Assembly (NCBI GenBank): GCA_027030485.1
Contig: JALVEY010000018.1
Location: 1 to 41,923, forward strand
DNA: 41,923 bases
Direction of reading: 5' to 3'
DNA from: Persephonella sp.
GTDB taxonomy: Bacteria > Aquificota > Aquificia > Aquificales > Hydrogenothermaceae
Position numbers and translations under genes: made by a program. The notes beneath the pieces are model-generated. The model was not told the origin of the DNA. It was given only the letters and a program-made list of their open reading frames with translations, and ran no database searches. Below, piece after piece: positions 1 to 15,933 of this stretch. The number at the start of each line of letters is the position of its first letter. The first letter of the stretch is position 1.

Positions 1-621
1 GTGGAGACCCTATCTAACATCCCGATCATTGTAACATATGAGGCATACTTTATGAACATAGGACCATCAGGGTTTTACGGTCCTAAACTGTTTCCTGTCA
101 GCGGGAAAGTTAAGAAACCGGGAGTATATGAAGCAACAATGGACATAACCCTAACAGAACTTATAGATATGGCAGGAGGGGTTAAAAATGGTAAAAAGGT
201 AAAGGCTGTGTTCGCTGGAGCTCTTGGGATTTACAGAGCTGACGAATTAGATATGCCTATGGATTATTCACCTAAAGGTTTCGGTGGGACAGGAACAACG
301 ATTGTCCTTGATGAAGACGACTGTATTGTTGATGCACTTGTTGTGATTACTAACTTTTTCCATCACGAAAGCTGTGGAAAATGTACGCCGTGCCGTATAG
401 GAACATACGAACAGCACATTATCCTGAAAAAACTGAAGGAAGGCAAAGCAACACAAAAAGATCTCCAGTATCTAAAACATCTGTCCCAGAACATACCTGC
501 AAACTCAATATGCGGTCTTGGTTTCTCTGCTCCAAATGCTGTTGCAGATGCTCTCAGAAAGTTTCCAGAGGAGATACAGGCACATTTAGACAGAACATGT
601 AAGGTATGTTTTAAGGATTGA
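1..621 (+). CDS. nuoF: NADH-quinone oxidoreductase subunit F, C-terminal part
   Basis: This is the last 206 codons of the NADH- and FMN-binding subunit of respiratory complex I; the 5' end lies outside the window, so the GTG at base 1 is only an internal codon. The visible part starts in the conserved VETLSNIP segment that closes the FMN domain. It continues through an SLBB-type region and ends in the iron-sulfur domain with ESCGKCTPCR, whose cysteines are residues 125, 128 and 131 of the visible part, plus Cys171 in NSICGLG. These four ligate cluster N3 in the family. The stop overlaps the convergent downstream gene by 11 bases. Identity is firm; only the extent is incomplete. Confidence 0.96.
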   Translation: METLSNIPIIVTYEAYFMNIGPSGFYGPKLFPVSGKVKKPGVYEATMDITLTELIDMAGGVKNGKKVKAVFAGALGIYRADELDMPMDYSPKGFGGTGTTIVLDEDDCIVDALVVITNFFHHESCGKCTPCRIGTYEQHIILKKLKEGKATQKDLQYLKHLSQNIPANSICGLGFSAPNAVADALRKFPEEIQAHLDRTCKVCFKD

Positions 622-2125
622 TATCTGATATAGAAACAGGATCAGCCCATAATGAACTTTGTAATTCCATATTAACAAAATCATTTGGAGTTATAATTCC
701 ATCAGCCGCATATTTCTTTAACCTGCCATCATTTCTAATGAATTTTTGCCAAAGTATATACACTGAAGAACTCTTAGTGAAAAACTTTCCATCATAATTT
801 CCATTAATTTTAAGTCCTGACTCTATAATGTTAGTTAGTCTCGAAGCTATTACCATTGAAGATAGATCACGGTTTTTATTCATAGATTTGATAAGTTTTC
901 CATTTCTTCCTAAGTACTCATCTAACTTTTTCTGAACCTGCTCTACATGAGAACCTTCAGAGCCTATTCTTATTCTTTTTAAACTGTTAACTGCTTTTAG
1001 TTTGTCTTCCAGAGATAAGGATTTAGAGAGTATTGTACTCAGGATGTAGGCTTCCATTCCTGTCAAAAGCATATATTCTGTTGTAGAATCATTCAAAACT
1101 TTCTTAGCCAGTACATGCTTAAATATTGCCCAGTCTTTTTTATGAACAACAGTATTTTCAGTTCTTTTTGCACTTCCCAGTATAACATTACAGCCTGCTG
1201 ACGAAAAGGAAGTTGTTATGTCTTTTCTTGAAGCATGGATGTTATCTGCAGGATTTGTGTACAGATCCCAGATGTCAAGATCCGTAAAAACAGCATTTCC
1301 TATAGTTCTGAGAACATTTACCCTGCCATTTTCCCTAAGTGCATTCGGTATTATTGTATCGCCTGAAGAATGATGCCCTTTCCTGTATTTGTATAAACCT
1401 GTTGGAAGGAGATTAACCTTCATCTGTTTTTGACAGGCTTTTTTCACGAAGTTTTCTGTTGGAACAGTTGAGGCTCTCAGTAATAAAATTTTATTTTGTT
1501 GTAAATCACAAATACCTATAATACAGTTTAGGTTTTTGTGATCTGGAAGGGTGTGTGCTACCTCTATTTTTGAAACAAATAACTGTTCAATGGCTGAGTC
1601 ATCTGCATGAAAAATGTCTTTCCATCTTTCTGAGGTTAATTTTGAAACTACTTTATTATTTTTTAGATCTGAAAGTTTACTTATGTAATTCTCATCTTTT
1701 ATGATACACCCTCTTAATCCAAAGAGGAGGTATCTGCCATTTGCACTAAAACTATTCAATTTGGCAAGTAATGTTATTATTTTTGGAGTAAGGTCAAATT
1801 TTTCCGTTAAGATGTATTTTTGCTTTACTATTTCAGCGTATTGTGAATCCATTTCCAAAAGATGCTGGTAATCTATAGAGTCTTCCAGATGGCACCATTT
1901 TACTTCAGAGCAGTTATTTTCATATATATGGGTATCAGAAGTTGGATCGGCAGAATTTTCACACACACGAACAGACTGCCGTGATGTAGGTTGTGTACCA
2001 GGAATGTTTGTTGTTTCTTCCTGAGATAATTTCTTTGTATATCTATCTATCAGATCAAAAACTTTGTTGTAGTCTCTTTTACTTTCTGGCGAAAGCTTAT
2101 TTTCTTCTTCCCATTGTATTTTCAT
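611..2125 (-). CDS. unknown protein with L,D-transpeptidase-like His/Cys signature and peptidoglycan-binding-like tail
   Basis: I do not recognise a named family. The region around residues 213-245 (ILLLRASTVPTENFV, then LLPTGLYKYRKGHH) leads to NIHASR near residue 297 and SSAGCNVI near Cys312. This resembles the HxG...S-x-GC arrangement of YkuD-type L,D-transpeptidases, so His297 and Cys312 are candidate catalytic residues. Residues 387-485 (GSEGSHVEQVQKKL, later ADGIITP) look like a peptidoglycan-binding-1 type helical domain. There is no signal peptide. I chose the ATG at 2125 over an in-frame TTG at 2140 because a GAGGT ribosome site lies at the proper distance from the ATG and overlaps the stop of the upstream gene. 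It is translationally linked to the 869-residue protein upstream (gap 11 bases). The function assignment is inference. Confidence 0.6.
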   Translation of the reverse strand: MKIQWEEENKLSPESKRDYNKVFDLIDRYTKKLSQEETTNIPGTQPTSRQSVRVCENSADPTSDTHIYENNCSEVKWCHLEDSIDYQHLLEMDSQYAEIVKQKYILTEKFDLTPKIITLLAKLNSFSANGRYLLFGLRGCIIKDENYISKLSDLKNNKVVSKLTSERWKDIFHADDSAIEQLFVSKIEVAHTLPDHKNLNCIIGICDLQQNKILLLRASTVPTENFVKKACQKQMKVNLLPTGLYKYRKGHHSSGDTIIPNALRENGRVNVLRTIGNAVFTDLDIWDLYTNPADNIHASRKDITTSFSSAGCNVILGSAKRTENTVVHKKDWAIFKHVLAKKVLNDSTTEYMLLTGMEAYILSTILSKSLSLEDKLKAVNSLKRIRIGSEGSHVEQVQKKLDEYLGRNGKLIKSMNKNRDLSSMVIASRLTNIIESGLKINGNYDGKFFTKSSSVYILWQKFIRNDGRLKKYAADGIITPNDFVNMELQSSLWADPVSISDINP

Positions 2126-2136
2126 CTTAATGTACC

Positions 2137-4746
2137 TCAATCTTCAGCAATACCGGATATATCTTCAATGTTCTCATCTATAAGAACATCTATTTTTCTT
2201 TTTCCTAAGGGTGTATTTTTTAAGGCACTGAGCTTTTTAACAGCCTCTTCTCTGTTTATTTTCCCTTTTCTAAACTCGGACATAATCAGGTTAACTTCCT
2301 TATGGATTTCTTCAGGGGTAAGAGCATCCCTTTCTTCAACAGATATATCTGTACATCTGTTTGAGACCAATATTGTCTCAACTTCTCCTTCATCATCTTT
2401 TTTATCGCTGTCTGTCTTATCATCATTTTTATCTTTATCTTTTTTTTCCTCCTTATTGGTAGAATCAGCTTTTTTACTTTTTGCTATCTCCTTAGCTGTA
2501 TTGATCAGATTATTGACTATCTCACTTACCTCTTTTTTTCCTGACATATCCCTGAAAATGTCAGATTTGGAAAGAATCTTTAGTGCCTCTGCTATTCCTG
2601 TAGGTTCTGGTGCCTGGGGAGGATTAACAATATTCAGTATAGATTTAGGAAACTCAGAGTTAGAGAGGTCTAATCCTTTTGCTCTTGAACCTAGTTTGAT
2701 ACCGGTTATTTCTGGAGCTTTTTCTGGGCAGGGAGATTCTTTCCAATCCCAAAATCTTGTAATATCTTTTTCTTCGCATGAATTACAGTGAGCAAGTCTT
2801 GTTTCTCCGAACACACCTCTTACAGGAAGAGCTATATATCTTTCCTCCTTGAAATCAGGTTTTTTTCCTTTTTTATCTGTTTCAACAAAACCTACATAAT
2901 CTGATAGCATGGCTACTGGAAAATAATTTATTTTTCCAAGTAGGTTAGGAAATTTATCAAAGTAATATCCAGGATCTTTGCTCATATAAACGACTTTTGC
3001 ATAGTAATACTTGTTTTCTCTAAAATGCTCTAATAATCTTTTTTTACATTCCTTTTTGTCTTGTATATTTTCTTTCAATGGGTTTTTAAAGGAATGAAAC
3101 CAGTAAGTACCATTGCTGATAAACCACTCATCCTCCCCAAAATCTTTCCTGTAAGAAAAGAACTCCTTTCCTGTGGAAGAGAAGGTTATTTTAATATATT
3201 CTGGTTTCCATCCCGGTTTTTCGCCTTTTCTTTCAAATTTAAGTCCTATAGATTTTATTTCTTCGGGATAAATATTATCTTGTGTAGTATCTATAACATA
3301 ACTATCAAGGCTGTTTCGTTCCCTATCATTTGCACCTTCTGTATCAAGACTGTACTCTTTAATTTCTCCTGAATCTTTCTGTAAAATGAGATAAACATCA
3401 GCATCTGTACCAGCATTTTTTATATCTGCTGTTTTGAGGGTAACATAGATGTTTGTCAATTTTTCATTATCGCTACTTTCGCCTGTCAAAACATCAAAAC
3501 ATTTTCCAAGATCAGGATCTAACAGATAATTCCTTAGCAGCCCCCAGTTTGACAATATCCATTTAAACAAAAGATCATCGTTATTACCGAATGCTTCACT
3601 TATCTCATTGATCTTTAAAAATAACACCTGCTTAATATCTTTTATACTCGTTTCAACCCTGTACTGTCTCAGGATTTCGTAATACAAAACAGTAATTGAA
3701 TGACAGTGATTATGATTTGTTATTGTTCTTGTTACTACTTTATCTTTTTCTCTTTGAAAAATCTGTGTAACAACACTACTTCTTAATGCTCTAACAGAAG
3801 AAGCTGCTTGAGTTATACTGTCTGCAAGTCTTTGAACAGATTCAGCATTTACACTTCTACTACCTGAAGAAGTAAAATATCCTCCTCCCAGTCCTATAGC
3901 ACCGGTAATTTCTTTTATTGTTCCAGCTAATGATAAACCTCCTGTAAATGAACCTCCCCGCTGCCATTCCTTAATAGTTCCTGCTATGACTTCCTCAATT
4001 GTCCTATCCCTTTTCAGTGTGTGATAAAGCTCTTCTTCAACTGTTGTTTCCTCTATTCTTTCTCCCGTATCTGACCTTGACCAATCTATCACCGCTATAT
4101 TGACTGATTCGCACGGAGCTAAGGATGTGCTATATACGATTTCTCCTAAGGCATGACCTAATGGAAACCATTTTGATTCGTACTCAACAAGTTCTGCATT
4201 TATGTTCCCATGTGATTTGTTTTTTAAAAGTATCTCTCCAAATATGAACTTTCTTTCTGGTAATGCATTTTTATAGAATATCTCACACCCTAATTCTCCA
4301 ATTCTTAGCTCAGGTTTAGTCCCTTTTAGTGAAGCAGACCAGATTCTATCTATAATGTCTGGGTCCGGATAATAAGATGGAAATGTTTCAGGTTTTATAG
4401 ATAATATACTGTCAGGAATTTTTACAATATTTATCTTTCCTTCATTATAAAAATCTATCTGTTTTATTTCTGAACTTATCTCTTCATTGCCTAAAAGAGT
4501 AAGATTTACCTTTTCAAGATGTTCAGGATAAAATTCTGATTCGATAGATATGTATCCATACTGGTCTGATTGGAAAACACCTATATCTTGAATAAACCTG
4601 CCGTTTTTTTCATTGGATACCAAATGTGTTATTGGTCTATTTCCTTTTTTTGAATACTGGGCTACTATCTTGACAGGGATGTTTGATCTTGGGTTTCCTG
4701 TATCTTTATCAAGTATATAAATGCGTATTCTTCCCCTTTTTAACAC
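2137..4746 (-). CDS. large protein with PLAT/LH2-like domain and NHNHCH motif, function unknown
   Basis: An 869-residue protein of an unnamed family, to my recollection seen in scattered bacteria. Residues 1-115 look like a beta-sandwich with a carboxypeptidase-regulatory-like start. Residues 195-365 form a conserved core: LAPCESVNIAVIDWSRSD, a glycine-rich stretch (264-298) that could insert into a membrane, and NHNHCH at 344-349. Residues 430-523 match the PLAT/LH2 pattern (IYVTLKTADIKNAGTDADVY, W513-centred strand). Residues 640-675 contain RGVFGETRLAHCNSCEEKD and FWDW, a possible metal-binding Cys/His set. Residues 755-788 are a charged Lys/Asp linker. It starts with GTG behind a very strong GGAGGGAGGAGG ribosome site. 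No signal peptide is seen. It is the first gene of a two-gene unit with the transpeptidase-like protein. Confidence 0.6.
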   Translation of the reverse strand: MLKRGRIRIYILDKDTGNPRSNIPVKIVAQYSKKGNRPITHLVSNEKNGRFIQDIGVFQSDQYGYISIESEFYPEHLEKVNLTLLGNEEISSEIKQIDFYNEGKINIVKIPDSILSIKPETFPSYYPDPDIIDRIWSASLKGTKPELRIGELGCEIFYKNALPERKFIFGEILLKNKSHGNINAELVEYESKWFPLGHALGEIVYSTSLAPCESVNIAVIDWSRSDTGERIEETTVEEELYHTLKRDRTIEEVIAGTIKEWQRGGSFTGGLSLAGTIKEITGAIGLGGGYFTSSGSRSVNAESVQRLADSITQAASSVRALRSSVVTQIFQREKDKVVTRTITNHNHCHSITVLYYEILRQYRVETSIKDIKQVLFLKINEISEAFGNNDDLLFKWILSNWGLLRNYLLDPDLGKCFDVLTGESSDNEKLTNIYVTLKTADIKNAGTDADVYLILQKDSGEIKEYSLDTEGANDRERNSLDSYVIDTTQDNIYPEEIKSIGLKFERKGEKPGWKPEYIKITFSSTGKEFFSYRKDFGEDEWFISNGTYWFHSFKNPLKENIQDKKECKKRLLEHFRENKYYYAKVVYMSKDPGYYFDKFPNLLGKINYFPVAMLSDYVGFVETDKKGKKPDFKEERYIALPVRGVFGETRLAHCNSCEEKDITRFWDWKESPCPEKAPEITGIKLGSRAKGLDLSNSEFPKSILNIVNPPQAPEPTGIAEALKILSKSDIFRDMSGKKEVSEIVNNLINTAKEIAKSKKADSTNKEEKKDKDKNDDKTDSDKKDDEGEVETILVSNRCTDISVEERDALTPEEIHKEVNLIMSEFRKGKINREEAVKKLSALKNTPLGKRKIDVLIDENIEDISGIAED

Positions 4747-4777
4747 CCTCCTCCCTCCTATTTTAAGAGATAAAATA

Positions 4778-4806
4778 AATCTAAGTATTTAAATACGAAT
4801 GGTCAA
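4778..4806 (-). promoter_or_regulatory. sigma-70-type promoter with palindrome in the spacer
   Basis: On the minus strand TTGACC (4806-4801) is followed after 17 bases by TAGATT (4783-4778), upstream of the 869-residue protein gene. The spacer contains the perfect 12-base palindrome GTATTTAAATAC (4785-4796), a possible operator. The predicted start of transcription near 4771 leaves a leader of about 25 bases. This is read from sequence only. Confidence 0.45.
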
Positions 4807-11245: not shown

Positions 11246-12066
11246 ACCTCTTTTGCGTGGAATGAACTCCTTACAAGCTTTCCGCTAAACACCTGTCTAA
11301 ATCCTATTCTGTACCCTAACTCCTCAAACATCTTAAACTCTTCATCTGAGTAATATTTGACGACAGGGTGGTGTTTTTTTGAGGGTCTCAAGTACTGCCC
11401 GACAGTCAGTATCTCACAGCCAGCATTAAACAGATCCTCCATCACACGGATCACCTCATCTGTCCCCTCTCCCAGACCAACCATAATGCCGGATTTAGTC
11501 AGGATATTTTTGTCCAGCTGTTTTACCCATCTGATCACAGAAAGGGATCTTGAGTAGTCTCCCCTGTGTCTTACTACAGGAAAAAGTCTTGGAACAGTCT
11601 CTATGTTGTGGTTTATGACATCAGGTTTTGCCTCTACAACGATTTTTAATGCATCTATACTTCCCAGAAAATCAGGTATAAGAACCTCAACTGAGCAGTC
11701 AGGTTTTTTTTGTTTTACAGCTTTAACAGTTTTTGCAAAATGGGAAGCTCCACCATCAGGAAGATCGTCTCTGTTGACAGATGTTATCACAACATAATCA
11801 AGGCTGAGCATATTAACGGCTTTTGCTATGTTGTAAGGTTCAGATGGATCAAGTGGAAGGGGTCTATCATGGGAAACATCACAGTAAGCACACTTTCTGG
11901 TACATCTGTCCCCCATTATCATAAATGTGGCTGTTTTTCTGCCGAAACAATCACCGATATTAGGGCATGAGGCCTCCTCACAAACAGTATGGAGGTTCAG
12001 CATCCTGAGCATAGCTTTCATTTTTGTAACATCTTCAGTTAAAAAACTTTTGACCTTAGGTTTCAA
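11227..12066 (-). CDS. lipA: lipoyl synthase
   Basis: A radical SAM enzyme that inserts two sulfurs into octanoyl groups to make lipoate. Both cluster sites are visible: the auxiliary-cluster motif CEEASCPNIGDC (Cys29, Cys34, Cys40) and the radical SAM CTRKCAYC (Cys55, Cys59, Cys62), plus the C-terminal RSSFHA that supplies the unusual serine ligand. The length of 279 is normal. The start is a TTG at 12066, supported by AAGGAG six bases upstream. It stands alone on the minus strand, divergent from yjbQ, and its end overlaps the preceding plus-strand gene. Confidence 0.95.
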   Translation of the reverse strand: MKPKVKSFLTEDVTKMKAMLRMLNLHTVCEEASCPNIGDCFGRKTATFMIMGDRCTRKCAYCDVSHDRPLPLDPSEPYNIAKAVNMLSLDYVVITSVNRDDLPDGGASHFAKTVKAVKQKKPDCSVEVLIPDFLGSIDALKIVVEAKPDVINHNIETVPRLFPVVRHRGDYSRSLSVIRWVKQLDKNILTKSGIMVGLGEGTDEVIRVMEDLFNAGCEILTVGQYLRPSKKHHPVVKYYSDEEFKMFEELGYRIGFRQVFSGKLVRSSFHAKEVYEGLT

Positions 12067-12132
12067 GTTTTTCTCCTTTGTGTTTTGAGATTAATCCTAT
12101 GTTAAACTATCAAAAAAAACAAGGGGTGAAAA

Positions 12133-12549
12133 ATGACAAAGGCATACACAGAATACCTCTGGTTTAACACAAAAAACAGAAGAGAGCTTATAAAAATAAC
12201 AGACAAAGTTCAAGAAGCCGTAAAAAAATCAGAGATAAAAGAAGGGCTATGCCTTGTTTCTGCGATGCATCTGACAGCATCAGTTTTTGTTCAGGACGAT
12301 GAGGAGGGACTGCATCAGGACATATGGCAGTGGCTTGAAGGATTAGCACCTTTTAAGCCTGATTACAAGCACCATTTAACCGGTGAAGACAACGGGGACG
12401 CCCACCTGAAAAACCTGCTTACCCATCTTCAGGTTGTTCTTCCTGTTACAGAAGGAAAGCTTGACCTTGGTCCCTGGCAGGAGGTTTTTTATGCAGAGTA
12501 TGACGGGCAGAGACCAAAAAGGGTGGTTATAAAAATTCTGGGTATTTAG
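12133..12549 (+). CDS. yjbQ: YjbQ family protein (UPF0047)
   Basis: A 138-residue member of the YjbQ/UPF0047 family, full length. Conserved histidine-rich segments are visible: [28 protein letters not shown], and the closing [14 protein letters not shown]. Members show weak thiamine-phosphate synthase activity, but the physiological role is unsettled. The ATG is preceded by AAGGGG. Its TAG stop shares bases with the TAA of the convergent gene (12546-12549). Confidence 0.88.
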
Positions 12550-12959
12550 TTGCATTTTTCTATCAGATCAACTCTCGGGTAGTAGAGCCTGTATATAAAC
12601 TGTATAACGTTTTTAAACGGGGTATGTATTATTTTGATTACCGTATCATTTTTTTCATAGGTTAATATATCGATAGCTGAAAATCTCTCTTTCCCTGTTA
12701 TCTTTTTCTGATCCTGAACAAATCTGTAAAAAGATTTATATTTCAGACTAATTTTGTATAGCCTATCAAGATAAAAATAGTAATATATAGTATCAGGGCT
12801 GAAGCCGTTAAAACTGTCCTTTTTTTCGTACACCTTCAGATCACCACACTGGAGTTTAAGTTTTATTCCCTGATACTGATCAGGAGTTGATCTCCATTTT
12901 ATCTCAAAGCCATAAGAAAAATATGCAATCAAAAATAAAACAACAAAAATAAACCTCAA
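12546..12959 (-). CDS. small secreted protein, unknown
   Basis: A 137-residue protein with a clear N-terminal signal sequence ([16 protein letters not shown]) and no other membrane segment, so it is probably periplasmic. The mature part is rich in Tyr, Lys and aromatic residues with alternating strands. Two cysteines (in LQCGDLKVY and at the C-terminal EKCN) could form a disulfide. The start is TTG, supported by AGGAGG five bases upstream. No family is recognised. Confidence 0.62.
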
Positions 12960-12977
12960 TTTTTCCTCCTAAAAATA

Positions 12978-12986
12978 TGCTATATT
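12978..12986 (+). promoter_or_regulatory. extended -10 promoter element
   Basis: TGCTATATT has the TGn extension followed by a near-consensus -10, 35 bases before the ATG at 13021. There is no clear -35. It lies beside the ribosome site of the divergent secreted-protein gene, so the two transcription units are packed within about 60 bases. Confidence 0.35.
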
Positions 12987-13020
12987 ATGAATATAATCAT
13001 TTTTGAAAAAAGGTAAAATA

Positions 13021-13242
13021 ATGGATCAGACAACCCAACAGCAGATACTAAATAAAACCCTTGAAAAGTGTGATCCCTATTCGGCTTTTGGTGTGTTCTG
13101 CAATGCTAACGGGTTAATTGAGGGACTGTTTATAATTGCAGGAGTTGTATTCCTTGTTGTATTGAGCCTCTGGTTTGTTAAGAAAAATCAGGAAGTAAAT
13201 GCAGATAAACACAGGGAAAAATACAGAAAGTATTCTCAGTGA
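13021..13242 (+). CDS. small single-span membrane protein
   Basis: A 73-residue protein with one transmembrane helix (about residues 34-54, LFIIAGVVFLVVLSLWFV) followed by a basic, cytoplasmic-looking tail. Two cysteines (CDPYSAFGVFC) precede the helix. The frame is open from a TTG at 13003, but the ATG at 13021 has an AAAGGT site at the right distance. Its size and position next to cytochrome c genes suggest an accessory subunit of a respiratory complex, but this is only a guess from context. The stop overlaps the convergent cytochrome gene by 7 bases. Confidence 0.6.
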   Translation: MDQTTQQQILNKTLEKCDPYSAFGVFCNANGLIEGLFIIAGVVFLVVLSLWFVKKNQEVNADKHREKYRKYSQ

Positions 13243-13618
13243 AATTGGGCATCATCATCAAGAATGTCCTCTATACTATCTTCAGTTTTATTCTGGCTGG
13301 ACAAGTTTTTTATAGACTCTATCAGAACATACCTCGCTAAAGCTTTTGCCTCATCATAAGGGATGTCGTATGGCGGCATATAAGCCATTCCTGGCCAGTT
13401 TTCAGGTTTTGGTTTTATAATCAGTTTTGCAACTGTTTCAACAGCTCTTTCGCTCTGACCGTATCTTTTTGAGATTTCTTTAAAAGAAGGACCCACAACC
13501 CTTCTGTCAATTGCATGACATGATGAACAGTTATACTTGTGAAAAAGATCTTCACCGTTTGCTGAGAAGGCATTATAAGAAGTTAAAAAAAAACGATAAA
13601 TATAAAAAGTAAACCCAT
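13236..13618 (-). CDS. c-type cytochrome with apparent frameshift in its signal peptide
   Basis: Reading the minus strand, ATG at 13618 opens a signal peptide (MGLLFIFIVFF), which runs to a tract of nine T. The rest (LTSYNAFSANGEDLFHKYN, then CSSCH, then VVGPSFKEI, then MAYMPPY) continues in another frame. One extra T would restore a full-length 126-residue monohaem cytochrome with haem motif CSSCH and a likely Met ligand. As given, no usable start exists in the downstream frame upstream of the CSSCH; the only in-frame GTG is at 13496, after it. The cause may be a sequencing error at the homopolymer, slippage expression, or a true mutation. A ribosome site AGGGGG lies before the ATG, inside a hairpin. 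Confidence 0.7.
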
Positions 13619-13626
13619 TTTATAAA

Positions 13627-13643
13627 GCCCCCTAAGGGGGGGC
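13627..13643 (-). terminator. GC-rich hairpin between the two cytochrome c genes
   Basis: GCCCCC (13627-13632) can pair with GGGGGC (13638-13643) around a five-base loop. On the minus strand it follows the stop of the upstream cytochrome gene by 6 bases and is followed by a short T-rich stretch. It also contains the AGGGGG ribosome site of the downstream cytochrome. It may therefore act as a weak terminator, a transcript end-stabiliser or a translation brake. Confidence 0.45.
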
Positions 13644-13649
13644 AAAGTG

Positions 13650-13973
13650 TTAGTGTTTTAACATAAATTCTACAAGCGCTTTAAGCTCCTCTTCAGACAT
13701 ATTCTTTGTTTTGTTCAATTGAGGCTTCATAATTCCAAACTTCGCTGGATCAACTATAGGTTTTGCTTCTCCTTTAAGGAACTTAATCATATCTCCTTCC
13801 TTTCCTTTGTAAGCCTGAGCTATCTCTTTAAGAGAAGGTCCTACAGTCTTAACGTTTGCCTGATGACATGCAGCACATCCGTTAGATTTGAAAAGAGCCT
13901 CTCCGTCTGCAGCCATAGCACCTGAAACAGTCACTGCAAAACCTAAAACTGCAGTTGCGATAACTTTCTTCAT
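13650..13973 (-). CDS. class I monohaem cytochrome c (c-552-like)
   Basis: A 107-residue periplasmic electron carrier. A signal peptide (MKKVIATAVLGFAVTVSGAMA) is followed by GEALFKSNGCAACH, the haem-binding CxxCH, then TVGPSLKEIA, and GIMKPQL with the distal methionine ligand. The length of about 86 mature residues fits the bacterial c-551/c-552 family, which passes electrons to terminal oxidases. It has a strong GGAGGT ribosome site and its own upstream promoter-like sequence. The following gene is a second cytochrome of the same family that carries a frameshift. Confidence 0.9.
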   Translation of the reverse strand: MKKVIATAVLGFAVTVSGAMAADGEALFKSNGCAACHQANVKTVGPSLKEIAQAYKGKEGDMIKFLKGEAKPIVDPAKFGIMKPQLNKTKNMSEEELKALVEFMLKH

Positions 13974-14019
13974 CTGTCTAACCTCCGTATGTTAGTTAAT
14001 GTATTCTTTAGTTTAATAT

Positions 14020-14030
14020 ACTATACCATC
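14020..14030 (-). promoter_or_regulatory. extended -10 promoter for the cytochrome c genes
   Basis: On the minus strand GATGGTATAGT contains TGnTATAGT, with a TTGTTA 15 bases further upstream. It lies about 50 bases before the cytochrome ATG. The 212-base gap between this gene and hemE (13974-14185) is the longest intergenic space in the window; it holds two divergent promoters and nothing else I can recognise. Confidence 0.4.
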
Positions 14031-14157
14031 ATTGTATTTTTAACAACTTTAGATCAATGGTTTTATGTTCTAAATCATATTTTTGTAATTTTTCGTATAT
14101 TTGAATTTGAGACTTAAGCTCAATTAGATATTTATTATAAAATTGTTTTTCCCAAAC

Positions 14158-14166
14158 TGGTATAAT
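14158..14166 (+). promoter_or_regulatory. extended -10 promoter for hemE
   Basis: TGGTATAAT is a perfect extended -10 (TGn plus TATAAT). Transcription would begin near 14173, giving a very short leader that still includes the AAAGGGAGG ribosome site at about 14176-14184. Confidence 0.5.
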
Positions 14167-14185
14167 TTTTCAAAAAAAGGGAGGA

Positions 14186-15229
14186 ATGATGAAAGATTTA
14201 AAAAATGATCTTTTTCTCAGGGCATGCCACAGACAGCCTGTGGAGAGAACCCCAATATGGCTTATGAGGCAGGCAGGTAGGTATATGCCTGAATACAGGG
14301 CTTTAAGGGAAAAAGCAGGAGGATTTGTTGCTTTTTACAAGAATGTTGAGCTTTCTGTTGAGGCTACAATTCTTCCGAGAAAAATTCTTGGTGTTGATGC
14401 CTCAATAATATTTTCTGATATTCTTACCCCCCTTGAGTCTATAGGAATGAAGTTTGAGTTCAGAGAAGGGGAAGGTCCTGTTTTTTTCAATCCTATTAAA
14501 CAGCCTGATGATATTTTAAGATTAAAAAAGTTTGATAGAAATGATGTTCATTATGTAGGTGAGATAATAAAAGGGGTAAACAGGGCATTAGATAGGGAGA
14601 TACCTACAATAGGCTTTTGCGGTGCTCCTTTTACTCTTGCTGCCTATATGATAGAGGGAAGAACATCAAGAGATTTTAAAAAGGCAAAAACTTTTATGTA
14701 CAACCACCCTGATGCATTTAAGGATCTATTAGACAGGCTTGCTGATATGCTTATAGATTATCTTAACTTTCAGATTGAGTCAGGGGCAGATGCTGTTCAG
14801 ATATTTGACAGCTGGGGAGGATATCTTTCTCCCGAAGATTACACAGAGTTTGCACTTCCACCGATCAAAAAGATCATCAAAGGATTAAATAGGGATTACC
14901 AGCCTGTTATACATTTTACAAAAGGTGTGGCAGGATTTTTTGATGATATGATCAGTTCAGGGGCTGATGTTTATGGTGTTGACTGGATGATAGATATATC
15001 GGTTGTAAAGGAAAAGCTAAAAGGAAAGGCTGCTGCACAGGGAAATCTTGACCCGATAGTTCTTTATGCAGATAAGGAAGTAATCAGGGAGAAAGCTGTC
15101 AGCATACTGAAAAAATGGGGAAAGGATACAGGTCACATATTTAACCTGGGACACGGGCTTATGCCTGATATGGAAGTGGAAAAGGTTAAATATCTTGTTG
15201 ATGTTGTGAAGGAAGAAAGTAAAAGGTAA
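14186..15229 (+). CDS. hemE: uroporphyrinogen decarboxylase
   Basis: The enzyme that removes four carboxyl groups from uroporphyrinogen III to give coproporphyrinogen III in haem synthesis. Diagnostic motifs are PIWLMRQAGRYMPEYR near the N-terminus, IFSDILTPLE with the catalytic aspartate, GFCGAPFTLAAYMIEG, and the closing NLGHGLMPD. The length of 347 is standard. Two tandem ATGs occur; the second (14189) is better spaced from GGGAGG. It is monocistronic and next to cytochrome c genes, which need its product. Confidence 0.96.
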   Translation: MMKDLKNDLFLRACHRQPVERTPIWLMRQAGRYMPEYRALREKAGGFVAFYKNVELSVEATILPRKILGVDASIIFSDILTPLESIGMKFEFREGEGPVFFNPIKQPDDILRLKKFDRNDVHYVGEIIKGVNRALDREIPTIGFCGAPFTLAAYMIEGRTSRDFKKAKTFMYNHPDAFKDLLDRLADMLIDYLNFQIESGADAVQIFDSWGGYLSPEDYTEFALPPIKKIIKGLNRDYQPVIHFTKGVAGFFDDMISSGADVYGVDWMIDISVVKEKLKGKAAAQGNLDPIVLYADKEVIREKAVSILKKWGKDTGHIFNLGHGLMPDMEVEKVKYLVDVVKEESKR

Positions 15230-15252
15230 GAGCTTTTAAACAGGCTCCTGCC

Positions 15253-15933
15253 TTATATAAGTTTTTTTCTGTATTTCTGGAGGTTCAGATGTGCAAGCCT
15301 TGTTGGTTCTGGAAGTTTGTAATCTTTTACTGACCGGATAACAACCTTTAGAGAGCTTTCTACGCTGATGTTGTTTCCGGGGGAAACAAAAACAGGGTTT
15401 GAGTTTTTTCTTGTTCTTAAGATGTATCCCCTCAGCTCACCGTCCACATAAACAGGTCTGTATGCAAATTTTTTGTTTTCTGGCTGTTCAAACTCCCCCG
15501 TTAGCTTTGATTTACCACAGCCTATGGAAATGGTGTCGGTAATAACCCCAAAGTGGGAGGCGATACCCATCTTTCTCGGGTGGATTATCCCCATTCCGTC
15601 AATTATAAATGCGTCCGGTTTTGTTTTTAGTTTTTTGTAAGCTTTTAAAATAACAGGAAGTTCCCTGTATGCTAAAAATGTAGGTATGTAAGGAAAATCA
15701 ACCGTTTCCTCTGCAAAAACTGTTTCTATTGTATTAAAACTCCTGATATCAATAACGGTTATACATGCTATACCGGTGGTTGGGTTTTTCCATATATCTG
15801 TAAATGTCACATCTATTCCTGCAACTATCTTTATCTTATCAACAGGGATTTTGTCTTTTATTTTTAGTTTTTTTGATAGTTTTATCTGTTCTTTTATTAG
15901 CCTATGGATTTTCTCCTGATCAAACCTTTTCAT
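15253..15933 (-). CDS. nfi: endonuclease V (deoxyinosine-specific)
   Basis: A DNA repair nuclease that cuts near deoxyinosine, 226 residues. Catalytic residues are visible: Asp41 in VAGIDVTF, Glu91 in LAYREL and Asp112 in IIDGMG, with the DNA wedge motif PYIP at 81-84 and IIHPRKMG following. The ATG at 15933 overlaps the proB stop in the arrangement TGATG; an in-frame TTG one codon earlier is less likely. Deamination repair suits a hot habitat, though the gene is widespread. It is the last gene of the 12-gene minus-strand run. Confidence 0.93.
   Translation of the reverse strand: MKRFDQEKIHRLIKEQIKLSKKLKIKDKIPVDKIKIVAGIDVTFTDIWKNPTTGIACITVIDIRSFNTIETVFAEETVDFPYIPTFLAYRELPVILKAYKKLKTKPDAFIIDGMGIIHPRKMGIASHFGVITDTISIGCGKSKLTGEFEQPENKKFAYRPVYVDGELRGYILRTRKNSNPVFVSPGNNISVESSLKVVIRSVKDYKLPEPTRLAHLNLQKYRKKLI

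What the first reader, a model, noticed from the sequence alone, without database searches (positions are those of the whole stretch)
611..4746. Two-gene module: PLAT-domain giant protein plus transpeptidase-like partner
The first protein joins a beta-sandwich, a core with a glycine-rich possibly membrane-active stretch, NHNHCH, a PLAT-like domain and a Cys/His segment (LAHCNSCEEKD). The second has a His297/Cys312 L,D-transpeptidase-like signature and a wall-binding-like tail. Neither has a signal peptide. The pair has its own promoter and sits next to nuoF, so it looks like acquired cargo. A lipid- plus wall-targeting system (toxin, effector or envelope repair) is conceivable.
Basis: inference. 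Interest (0 to 1): 0.6.

Follow-up and report, generated by a model that had tools for sequence, protein, structure and literature searches.

The report
Swappable-effector protein with wall-enzyme partner
A gene pair inserted between two housekeeping genes of a hot-spring-type bacterium belongs to an apparently undescribed family, spread across bacteria and salt-loving archaea, in which a constant carrier protein is combined with interchangeable attack-type enzymes, often of the kind phages use to break cell walls; it looks like a weapon against other microbes, but that has not been tested.

Summary
Both ORFs are real and form one unit: A (2137-4746, 869 aa) and B (611-2140). It is a ~4.1-kb insertion: in close relatives nuoF and the aminotransferase abut directly. 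A carries a true PLAT domain (Pfam 3e-10) in a large core unknown to Pfam, NCBIfam and PADLOC. The core occurs sporadically (2/136 Aquificota, 16/395 Streptomycetaceae, also Bacteroidota, Proteobacteria, Cyanobacteria, haloarchaea), often on plasmids. Cores are alike in 296/300 pairs, C-terminal tails in about 13. Tails or next genes carry lytic transglycosylase, endolysin-like, CHAP-like, DUF2272, OmpA, AvrRpt2-type peptidase, PETase-like hydrolase, zincin-like or pre-toxin modules; the middle slot holds PLAT or Tectonin. B is the window's version: a remote relative of a phage endolysin-associated His/Cys domain (phrog_3000) with a possible wall-binding tail. The L,D-transpeptidase fold, a membrane-active stretch and a private promoter were not supported. 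Best reading: a polymorphic-toxin-like effector against other microbes' envelopes, export route unknown. Delivery, target and toxicity are inference; no adjacent immunity gene, eCIS sheath or PVC peptidase was found.

The parts
2137..4746 (-). ORF A, 869 aa, GTG start with AGGAGG upstream; constant-core carrier protein
4417..4746 (-). A residues 1-110, probable beta-sandwich (transthyretin / CarboxypepD_reg-like)
   Evidence: weak: A E=0.08 to hydroxyisourate hydrolase; relatives CarboxypepD_reg 0.0019 and 0.014
3490..4197 (-). A core segment 1 (res 184-419): LAP motif, charged segment, Gly/Ser loop, charged segment, NHNHCH, YYEVLR-like
   Evidence: profile A1
3847..3963 (-). Gly/Ser-rich loop of core 1 (about res 262-300)
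   Evidence: not hydrophobic enough for a TM segment
3700..3717 (-). NHNHCH motif (res 344-349)
   Evidence: N344 and N346 invariant in A1
3163..3444 (-). PLAT/LH2 domain (res 435-528), swappable middle slot
   Evidence: Pfam PF01477 3e-10; Tectonin in the same slot in L014 and L015
2527..3051 (-). A core segment 2 (res 566-740)
   Evidence: profile A3
2773..2787 (-). CNSCE motif (res 654-658); the Glu is invariant in the family
2140..2526 (-). short charged tail of A (res 741-869) where relatives carry an effector domain
611..2140 (-). ORF B (509 aa from TTG; likely start ATG at 2125, 504 aa), 11-bp overlap with the end of nuoF
1046..1693 (-). B residues 150-365: remote relative of phage phrog_3000 / endolysin-associated SAGC domain
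1235..1237 (-). invariant His of B (H302; H297 from the ATG)
1190..1192 (-). invariant Cys of SAGC (C317; C312 from the ATG)
650..988 (-). B tail resembling a PG_binding_1 repeat
   Evidence: suggestive only: 6/2000 shuffles reach the score; no Pfam hit
611..4802 (.). approximate extent of the insertion between nuoF and the aminotransferase
   Evidence: empty site in G010, G011, G009

Best explanation
A and B are one horizontally acquired effector unit of a polymorphic-toxin-like family. Shown: A has a constant core, split around a swappable middle domain (PLAT here, Tectonin in others), and the C-terminal slot or the next gene carries unrelated enzymes in different genomes. Shown: B, encoded directly after A, contains a remote relative of a phage endolysin-associated His/Cys domain. 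Inferred: B is the window's version of the exchangeable part. Inferred: the PLAT domain docks the complex on a target membrane or lipid, and B binds and cuts or modifies peptidoglycan with its His/Cys pair. Inferred: the proteins have no export signal, so they leave by cell lysis or by a non-Sec machine, and act on other microbes. Envelope repair or housekeeping is less likely because the unit is rare, mobile and functionally variable.
For: Constant core versus variable tail: 296/300 core pairs similar, tails in about 13, mostly near-identical cores or short stretches. Inside the well-supported 7-row clade holding A (98/97) the tails are CHAP-like (L004, weak), endolysin-like (L006, 1e-4), nuclease-like by motif only (L005), unknown (L009/L016), absent (L003), or B as a next gene. 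Other tails: lytic transglycosylase (L010, PDB 9udh 1.8e-40), DUF2272 (L008, L011), OmpA (L007, L035, L038), Peptidase_C70 1e-21 and PETase-like 4e-7 in two tandem copies of one genome (L167), PT-TG pre-toxin in the gene after L018's core (1.6e-13). A haloarchaeon carries a DUF2272 tail (L011): archaea have no murein (general knowledge), so a wall target would lie outside the producer. B: phrog_3000 E=0.0042; own profile 15.4 bits, 0/5000 shuffles reach it (max 10.3), best unrelated ORF 4.9; candidate catalytic residues kept. Acquisition: empty site and phyletic pattern.
Against: No adjacent immunity ORF fits between B and nuoF (11-bp overlap), and no consistent one was seen in the neighbourhoods inspected. 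No secretion signal and no PVC-metallopeptidase motif in any member, no eCIS sheath in the host assembly (83% complete). Short core-only relatives (~450 aa, L039-L043) show that the core can exist without an effector. B's catalytic activity is inferred from motif and remote homology only, and no full-length homologue of B was found in the collections searched. The core's fold and function are unknown.
Confidence: 0.5

Rival explanations
1. Cargo of a contractile injection system (eCIS/PVC or T6SS-like): the core is a loading or spike adaptor and the tails are injected effectors.
For: No Sec signal; the tail repertoire (OmpA, peptidases, lysins, nucleases) and the phyletic breadth including haloarchaea and Streptomyces resemble PVC-SS toxins, which also often lack immunity genes (PMC3482391). 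Sheath genes are present in G062, G721 and two Streptomyces replicons.
Against: No sheath hit in the window's assembly nor in G061, G255, G263, G327, G070; 2 of 10 plasmid records, with the sheath gene 0.4 Mb or more from the core gene; no HExxHxxQ PVC-metallopeptidase in any member. T6SS was not tested.
Confidence: 0.17
2. Anti-phage or abortive-infection module: the core senses infection and activates a self-killing effector, so no immunity gene is needed.
For: Sporadic and plasmid-borne; in Polaromonas it lies near a type I restriction subunit, TIR and PIN genes; no signal peptides; exchangeable effectors are typical of defence.
Against: No PADLOC match; wall enzymes are odd effectors for a protein kept in the cytoplasm; DUF2272 in an archaeon has no murein target of its own; other neighbourhoods are not obvious defence islands.
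Confidence: 0.13
3. Domestic envelope-associated protein: remodelling, adhesion or repair of the producer's own wall.
For: PLAT, OmpA and wall-binding modules are envelope-associated; the producer has no immunity gene yet tolerates it; core-only short forms exist.
Against: Absent from all 60 nearest genomes; AvrRpt2-type peptidase, PETase-like and pre-toxin modules occupy the same slot; no Sec signal.
Confidence: 0.12

Closest known systems
Polymorphic toxin systems (Zhang et al. 2012, PMC3482391)
   Same: Constant N-terminal part, adhesion-like middle domains, exchangeable C-terminal effectors including LD-peptidase, papain-like, zincin, OmpA and nuclease types
   Different: Core matches no known trafficking domain in the libraries searched; no Sec signal or consistent adjacent immunity gene; the effector may sit in a separate gene, as in the window
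PVC/eCIS-delivered toxins
   Same: Effector repertoire, phyletic breadth including haloarchaea, frequent lack of immunity genes, no Sec signal
   Different: No PVC-metallopeptidase motif; no eCIS genes next to the module; several host genomes without a sheath hit
Phage phrog_3000 domain / C-terminal domain of phage endolysin phrog_33083
   Same: B shares His, Arg, SAGC and the C-terminal Tyr-x-Leu pattern in the same order
   Different: Only 14-21% identity; B is bacterial, lies in an operon with A, and has extra N-terminal and C-terminal regions
L,D-transpeptidase (YkuD)
   Same: His 15 residues before the Cys of a Ser-x-Gly-Cys motif
   Different: SAGC instead of SHGC; no profile hit and no fold match
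PLAT/LH2-domain proteins (lipoxygenase, clostridial phospholipase C)
   Same: True PLAT domain
   Different: No lipoxygenase or phospholipase domain was matched in A; only the PLAT module is shared

Membership tests
PLAT/LH2 domain | Pfam PF01477 above gathering score | tested here: met
   41.3 bits against cut-off 23, E=3e-10
Phage phrog_3000-like SAGC domain | profile similarity along the domain and the invariant H, R, H, SAGC, Y residues | tested here: met
   E=0.0042; 15.4 bits, 0/5000 shuffles; residues kept; BFVD fold match 1.2e-7 (not independent because the phage rows were in the alignment)
L,D-transpeptidase (YkuD) | PF03734 profile match | tested here: not met
   no Pfam hit up to E=10
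L,D-transpeptidase (YkuD) | YkuD fold | tested here: inconclusive
   no PDB match at E<=0.001, but the model has moderate confidence (pLDDT 67.6, pTM 0.62)
PG_binding_1 | Pfam match in B tail | tested here: inconclusive
   no Pfam hit; pairwise score reached by 6 of 2000 shuffles
Polymorphic toxin system | conserved core with unrelated C-terminal effectors in related proteins | tested here: met
Polymorphic toxin system | adjacent immunity gene | tested here: not met
   B overlaps the nuoF end by 11 bp; no consistent candidate in relatives
Polymorphic toxin system | recognised trafficking leader | tested here: not met
   no signal peptide by hydropathy; no trafficking domain in Pfam or NCBIfam
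PVC/eCIS effector | PVC-metallopeptidase HExxHxxQ | tested here: not met
PVC/eCIS effector | eCIS sheath in the same genome | tested here: not met
   0 hits in the window's assembly (83% complete); 2 of 8 genomes in all
Known anti-phage defence system | PADLOC profile match | tested here: not met
Toxin activity | growth inhibition by the effector | not testable with these tools
   needs an expression assay

The most novel reading that the evidence does not exclude
The core is a self-contained delivery or assembly protein of a new type, working in bacteria and archaea without a Sec signal or a phage-tail machine, that carries exchangeable lysins and toxins into other cells.
Probability: 0.2. 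Interest if true: 0.85.

Novelty: new variant of a known kind. Interest (0 to 1): 0.6.

Why it matters
If right, this adds an apparently undescribed core family to the polymorphic effectors, shared by bacteria and haloarchaea, in which lysin-type wall enzymes and targeting domains are exchanged around a constant core. It would give a handle for finding new antibacterial enzymes, would extend such conflict systems to Aquificota, and would raise a testable question: how a protein with no known export signal reaches its target. A conserved core without assigned structure or function across several phyla is itself a clear experimental target.

Tried and rejected
(1) Virus or phage origin of A: viral-contig scans with A and with alignment A1 found no relative; the one 'Bacteriophage sp.' record (L008) looks like a bacterial contig by its genes. 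(2) eCIS linkage by PF04984: mostly negative. (3) Single-sequence AlphaFold of B: useless, pLDDT 32. (4) PDB fold search of the B domain: no significant match. (5) Core profile against PDB sequences: none. (6) Direct homologues of B in plasmids, phages, viral contigs and 60 relatives: none significant. (7) Known defence families: no PADLOC hit. (8) Promoter and terminator scans: at background.

Full report
WHAT IS THERE. The window (a 41.9-kb contig of a 1.45-Mb, 83%-complete assembly) carries two minus-strand ORFs between nuoF and a class I/II aminotransferase: A, 2137-4746, 869 aa, and B, 611-2140, 509 aa from a TTG or 504 aa from the more likely ATG at 2125. A has AGGAGG upstream of its GTG; the A stop lies 11 nt before the ATG of B, with GAGG in between, so A and B are probably one operon. 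A lies 56 bp downstream of the co-oriented aminotransferase; the only well-placed promoter-like site (TTGACC-17-TAGATT) is no better than chance in this region (18 found, 17.7 expected). A private promoter is therefore unproven.

IT IS AN INSERTION. A and B have no homologue in the 60 nearest genomes. In the same genus, nuoF and this aminotransferase are direct convergent neighbours: the protein matches end within 5-9 bp of each other in G010, G011 and G009, and the junction sequences show the two genes abutting; a degraded form of the arrangement is seen in G008. In the window A+B occupies exactly that junction, B overlapping the nuoF end by 11 bp, and nuoF ends two residues later than in G010/G011. 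GC content of the module (0.33-0.35) is close to that of the neighbouring genes. The core occurs in 2 of 136 Aquificota genomes, and the other copy (G070, L020, a partial gene in an assembly with 6% contamination) falls outside the well-supported clade of A (98/97), which otherwise holds Polaromonas, Nostoc, Streptomyces and a Saprospiraceae MAG. This is lateral acquisition; no transposase or integrase lies at the junction.

PROTEIN A AND ITS FAMILY. Pfam finds one significant domain, PLAT, at 435-528 (3e-10). Around it is a core in two segments (184-419 and 566-740) that no library explained. Relatives (about 24-47% identity in core 1) were found in Bacteroidota, Actinomycetota, Alpha-, Beta- and Gammaproteobacteria, Cyanobacteria and the haloarchaeon Haladaptatus, many on plasmids. 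Core 1 has an invariant LAP motif, a charged segment, a Gly/Ser-rich loop, a second charged segment, and the signature that is NHNHCH in A; core 2 has the CNSCE-FW-W signature, whose Glu is invariant. The second Cys is often replaced, so a Cys/His metal site is not a family-wide feature. The Gly-rich loop of A is not hydrophobic enough to be a membrane segment (0.87; relatives up to 1.86).

THE SWAPPABLE SLOTS. Among 25 members tested, 296 of 300 core pairs are similar by BLAST at 1e-3, but tails in only about 13 pairs, mostly near-identical cores or short stretches. Tail or next-gene content by profile: lytic transglycosylase (L010; PDB 9udh 1.8e-40; phage baseplate hub 1.4e-38), DUF2272 (L011 1e-15, L008 8e-13), OmpA (L007, L035, L038), Peptidase_C70 AvrRpt2-type (L167, 1e-21) and PETase-like hydrolase (L167, 4e-7) in two tandem copies of one Streptomycetaceae genome, endolysin (L006, 1e-4, a short match), CHAP (L004, weak 0.0075), and PT-TG pre-toxin in the gene after L018's core (1.6e-13). 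By motif only: zincin HExxH (L037, L168) and a nuclease-like EIKP motif (L005). The middle slot is PLAT in A and Tectonin in L014 and L015. Some Bacteroidota carry short ~450-aa core-only relatives.

PROTEIN B. B has no Pfam match but matches phrog_3000 over 151-328 (0.0042). The phage proteins of that family also match phrog_33083, annotated endolysin. A profile built from 28 phage relatives, collected by a motif search of viral contigs, hits B 203-324 with 15.4 bits; none of 5000 shuffles reaches it (max 10.3) and the best unrelated ORF scores 4.9. A caveat: those phage proteins were chosen because they carry a YSAGCQV motif resembling that of B, so the motif itself is not independent evidence; the colinear match outside the motif and the phrog_3000 hit are. 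In the 26-row alignment B keeps every invariant residue: H, R, H302, SAGC with C317, V and Y. An alignment-based model (pLDDT 67.6, pTM 0.62) matches four phage proteins in BFVD (best 1.2e-7), which is not independent of the alignment, and nothing in PDB at E<=0.001. So 'endolysin-associated His/Cys domain' is supported, 'L,D-transpeptidase' is not. The tail resembles a peptidoglycan-binding repeat (6 of 2000 shuffles as good); one phage relative (L090) has such a repeat before its SAGC domain.

MECHANISM. Shown: modular core, exchangeable effectors, lateral spread, lysin-type relatives. Inferred: PLAT-mediated docking on lipid, wall cleavage or modification by B, release by lysis or a non-Sec route, action on other microbes. 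The haloarchaeal member with a DUF2272 tail argues for a target outside the producer, as archaea lack murein (general knowledge; the DUF2272 substrate was not tested here). Against a classical toxin-immunity pair: no immunity gene. PVC-type effectors also often lack immunity genes (PMC3482391), but neither the PVC peptidase motif nor, in most genomes checked, a sheath gene was found.

NOVELTY. Polymorphic effectors are known; literature searches found no description of this core or of its combination with PLAT, within an open-access library only. I file it as a new variant of a known kind, with a 0.2 chance that the core is a new delivery principle.

Noticed in passing
L167:5651-11140 and 11453-15457: One Streptomycetaceae genome has two tandem core proteins with different tails, PETase-like hydrolase and AvrRpt2-type peptidase.
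   Followed up: partly
L039:6473-8609, L041:6409-8106: Core-only relatives of ~450 aa in Bacteroidota, ending in a conserved EYRCCP motif, lie near a small DUF1360-like membrane protein gene (DUF1360 matched in L039; similar small ORF in L041).
   Followed up: partly
L014:4960-5451: S. clavuligerus has a separate PLAT/LH2 gene about 2.3 kb upstream of a core protein that carries Tectonin in the middle slot.
   Followed up: no
L011:7239-11312: A haloarchaeal plasmid gene carries a DUF2272 domain as effector tail although archaea lack murein.
   Followed up: partly
L008 (MT835996.1): GenBank record labelled 'Bacteriophage sp.' looks like a bacterial contig by its genes (glucanotransferase, symporter, etc.).
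   Followed up: partly
L020 (G070): A second Aquificota assembly holds a partial core gene of a different subtype; the assembly has 6% contamination.
   Followed up: partly
L090:6998-7780: Phage protein joins a peptidoglycan-binding-like repeat to the SAGC domain; the phrog_3000 family has no assigned function.
   Followed up: no
L148 and L149: CRISPR-like repeats (GTTTCAATTCCTTATAGGCACTCTAAAAAC in L149) lie beside the aminotransferase, and similar repeats near nuoF, in G003, where the two genes are apart.
   Followed up: no
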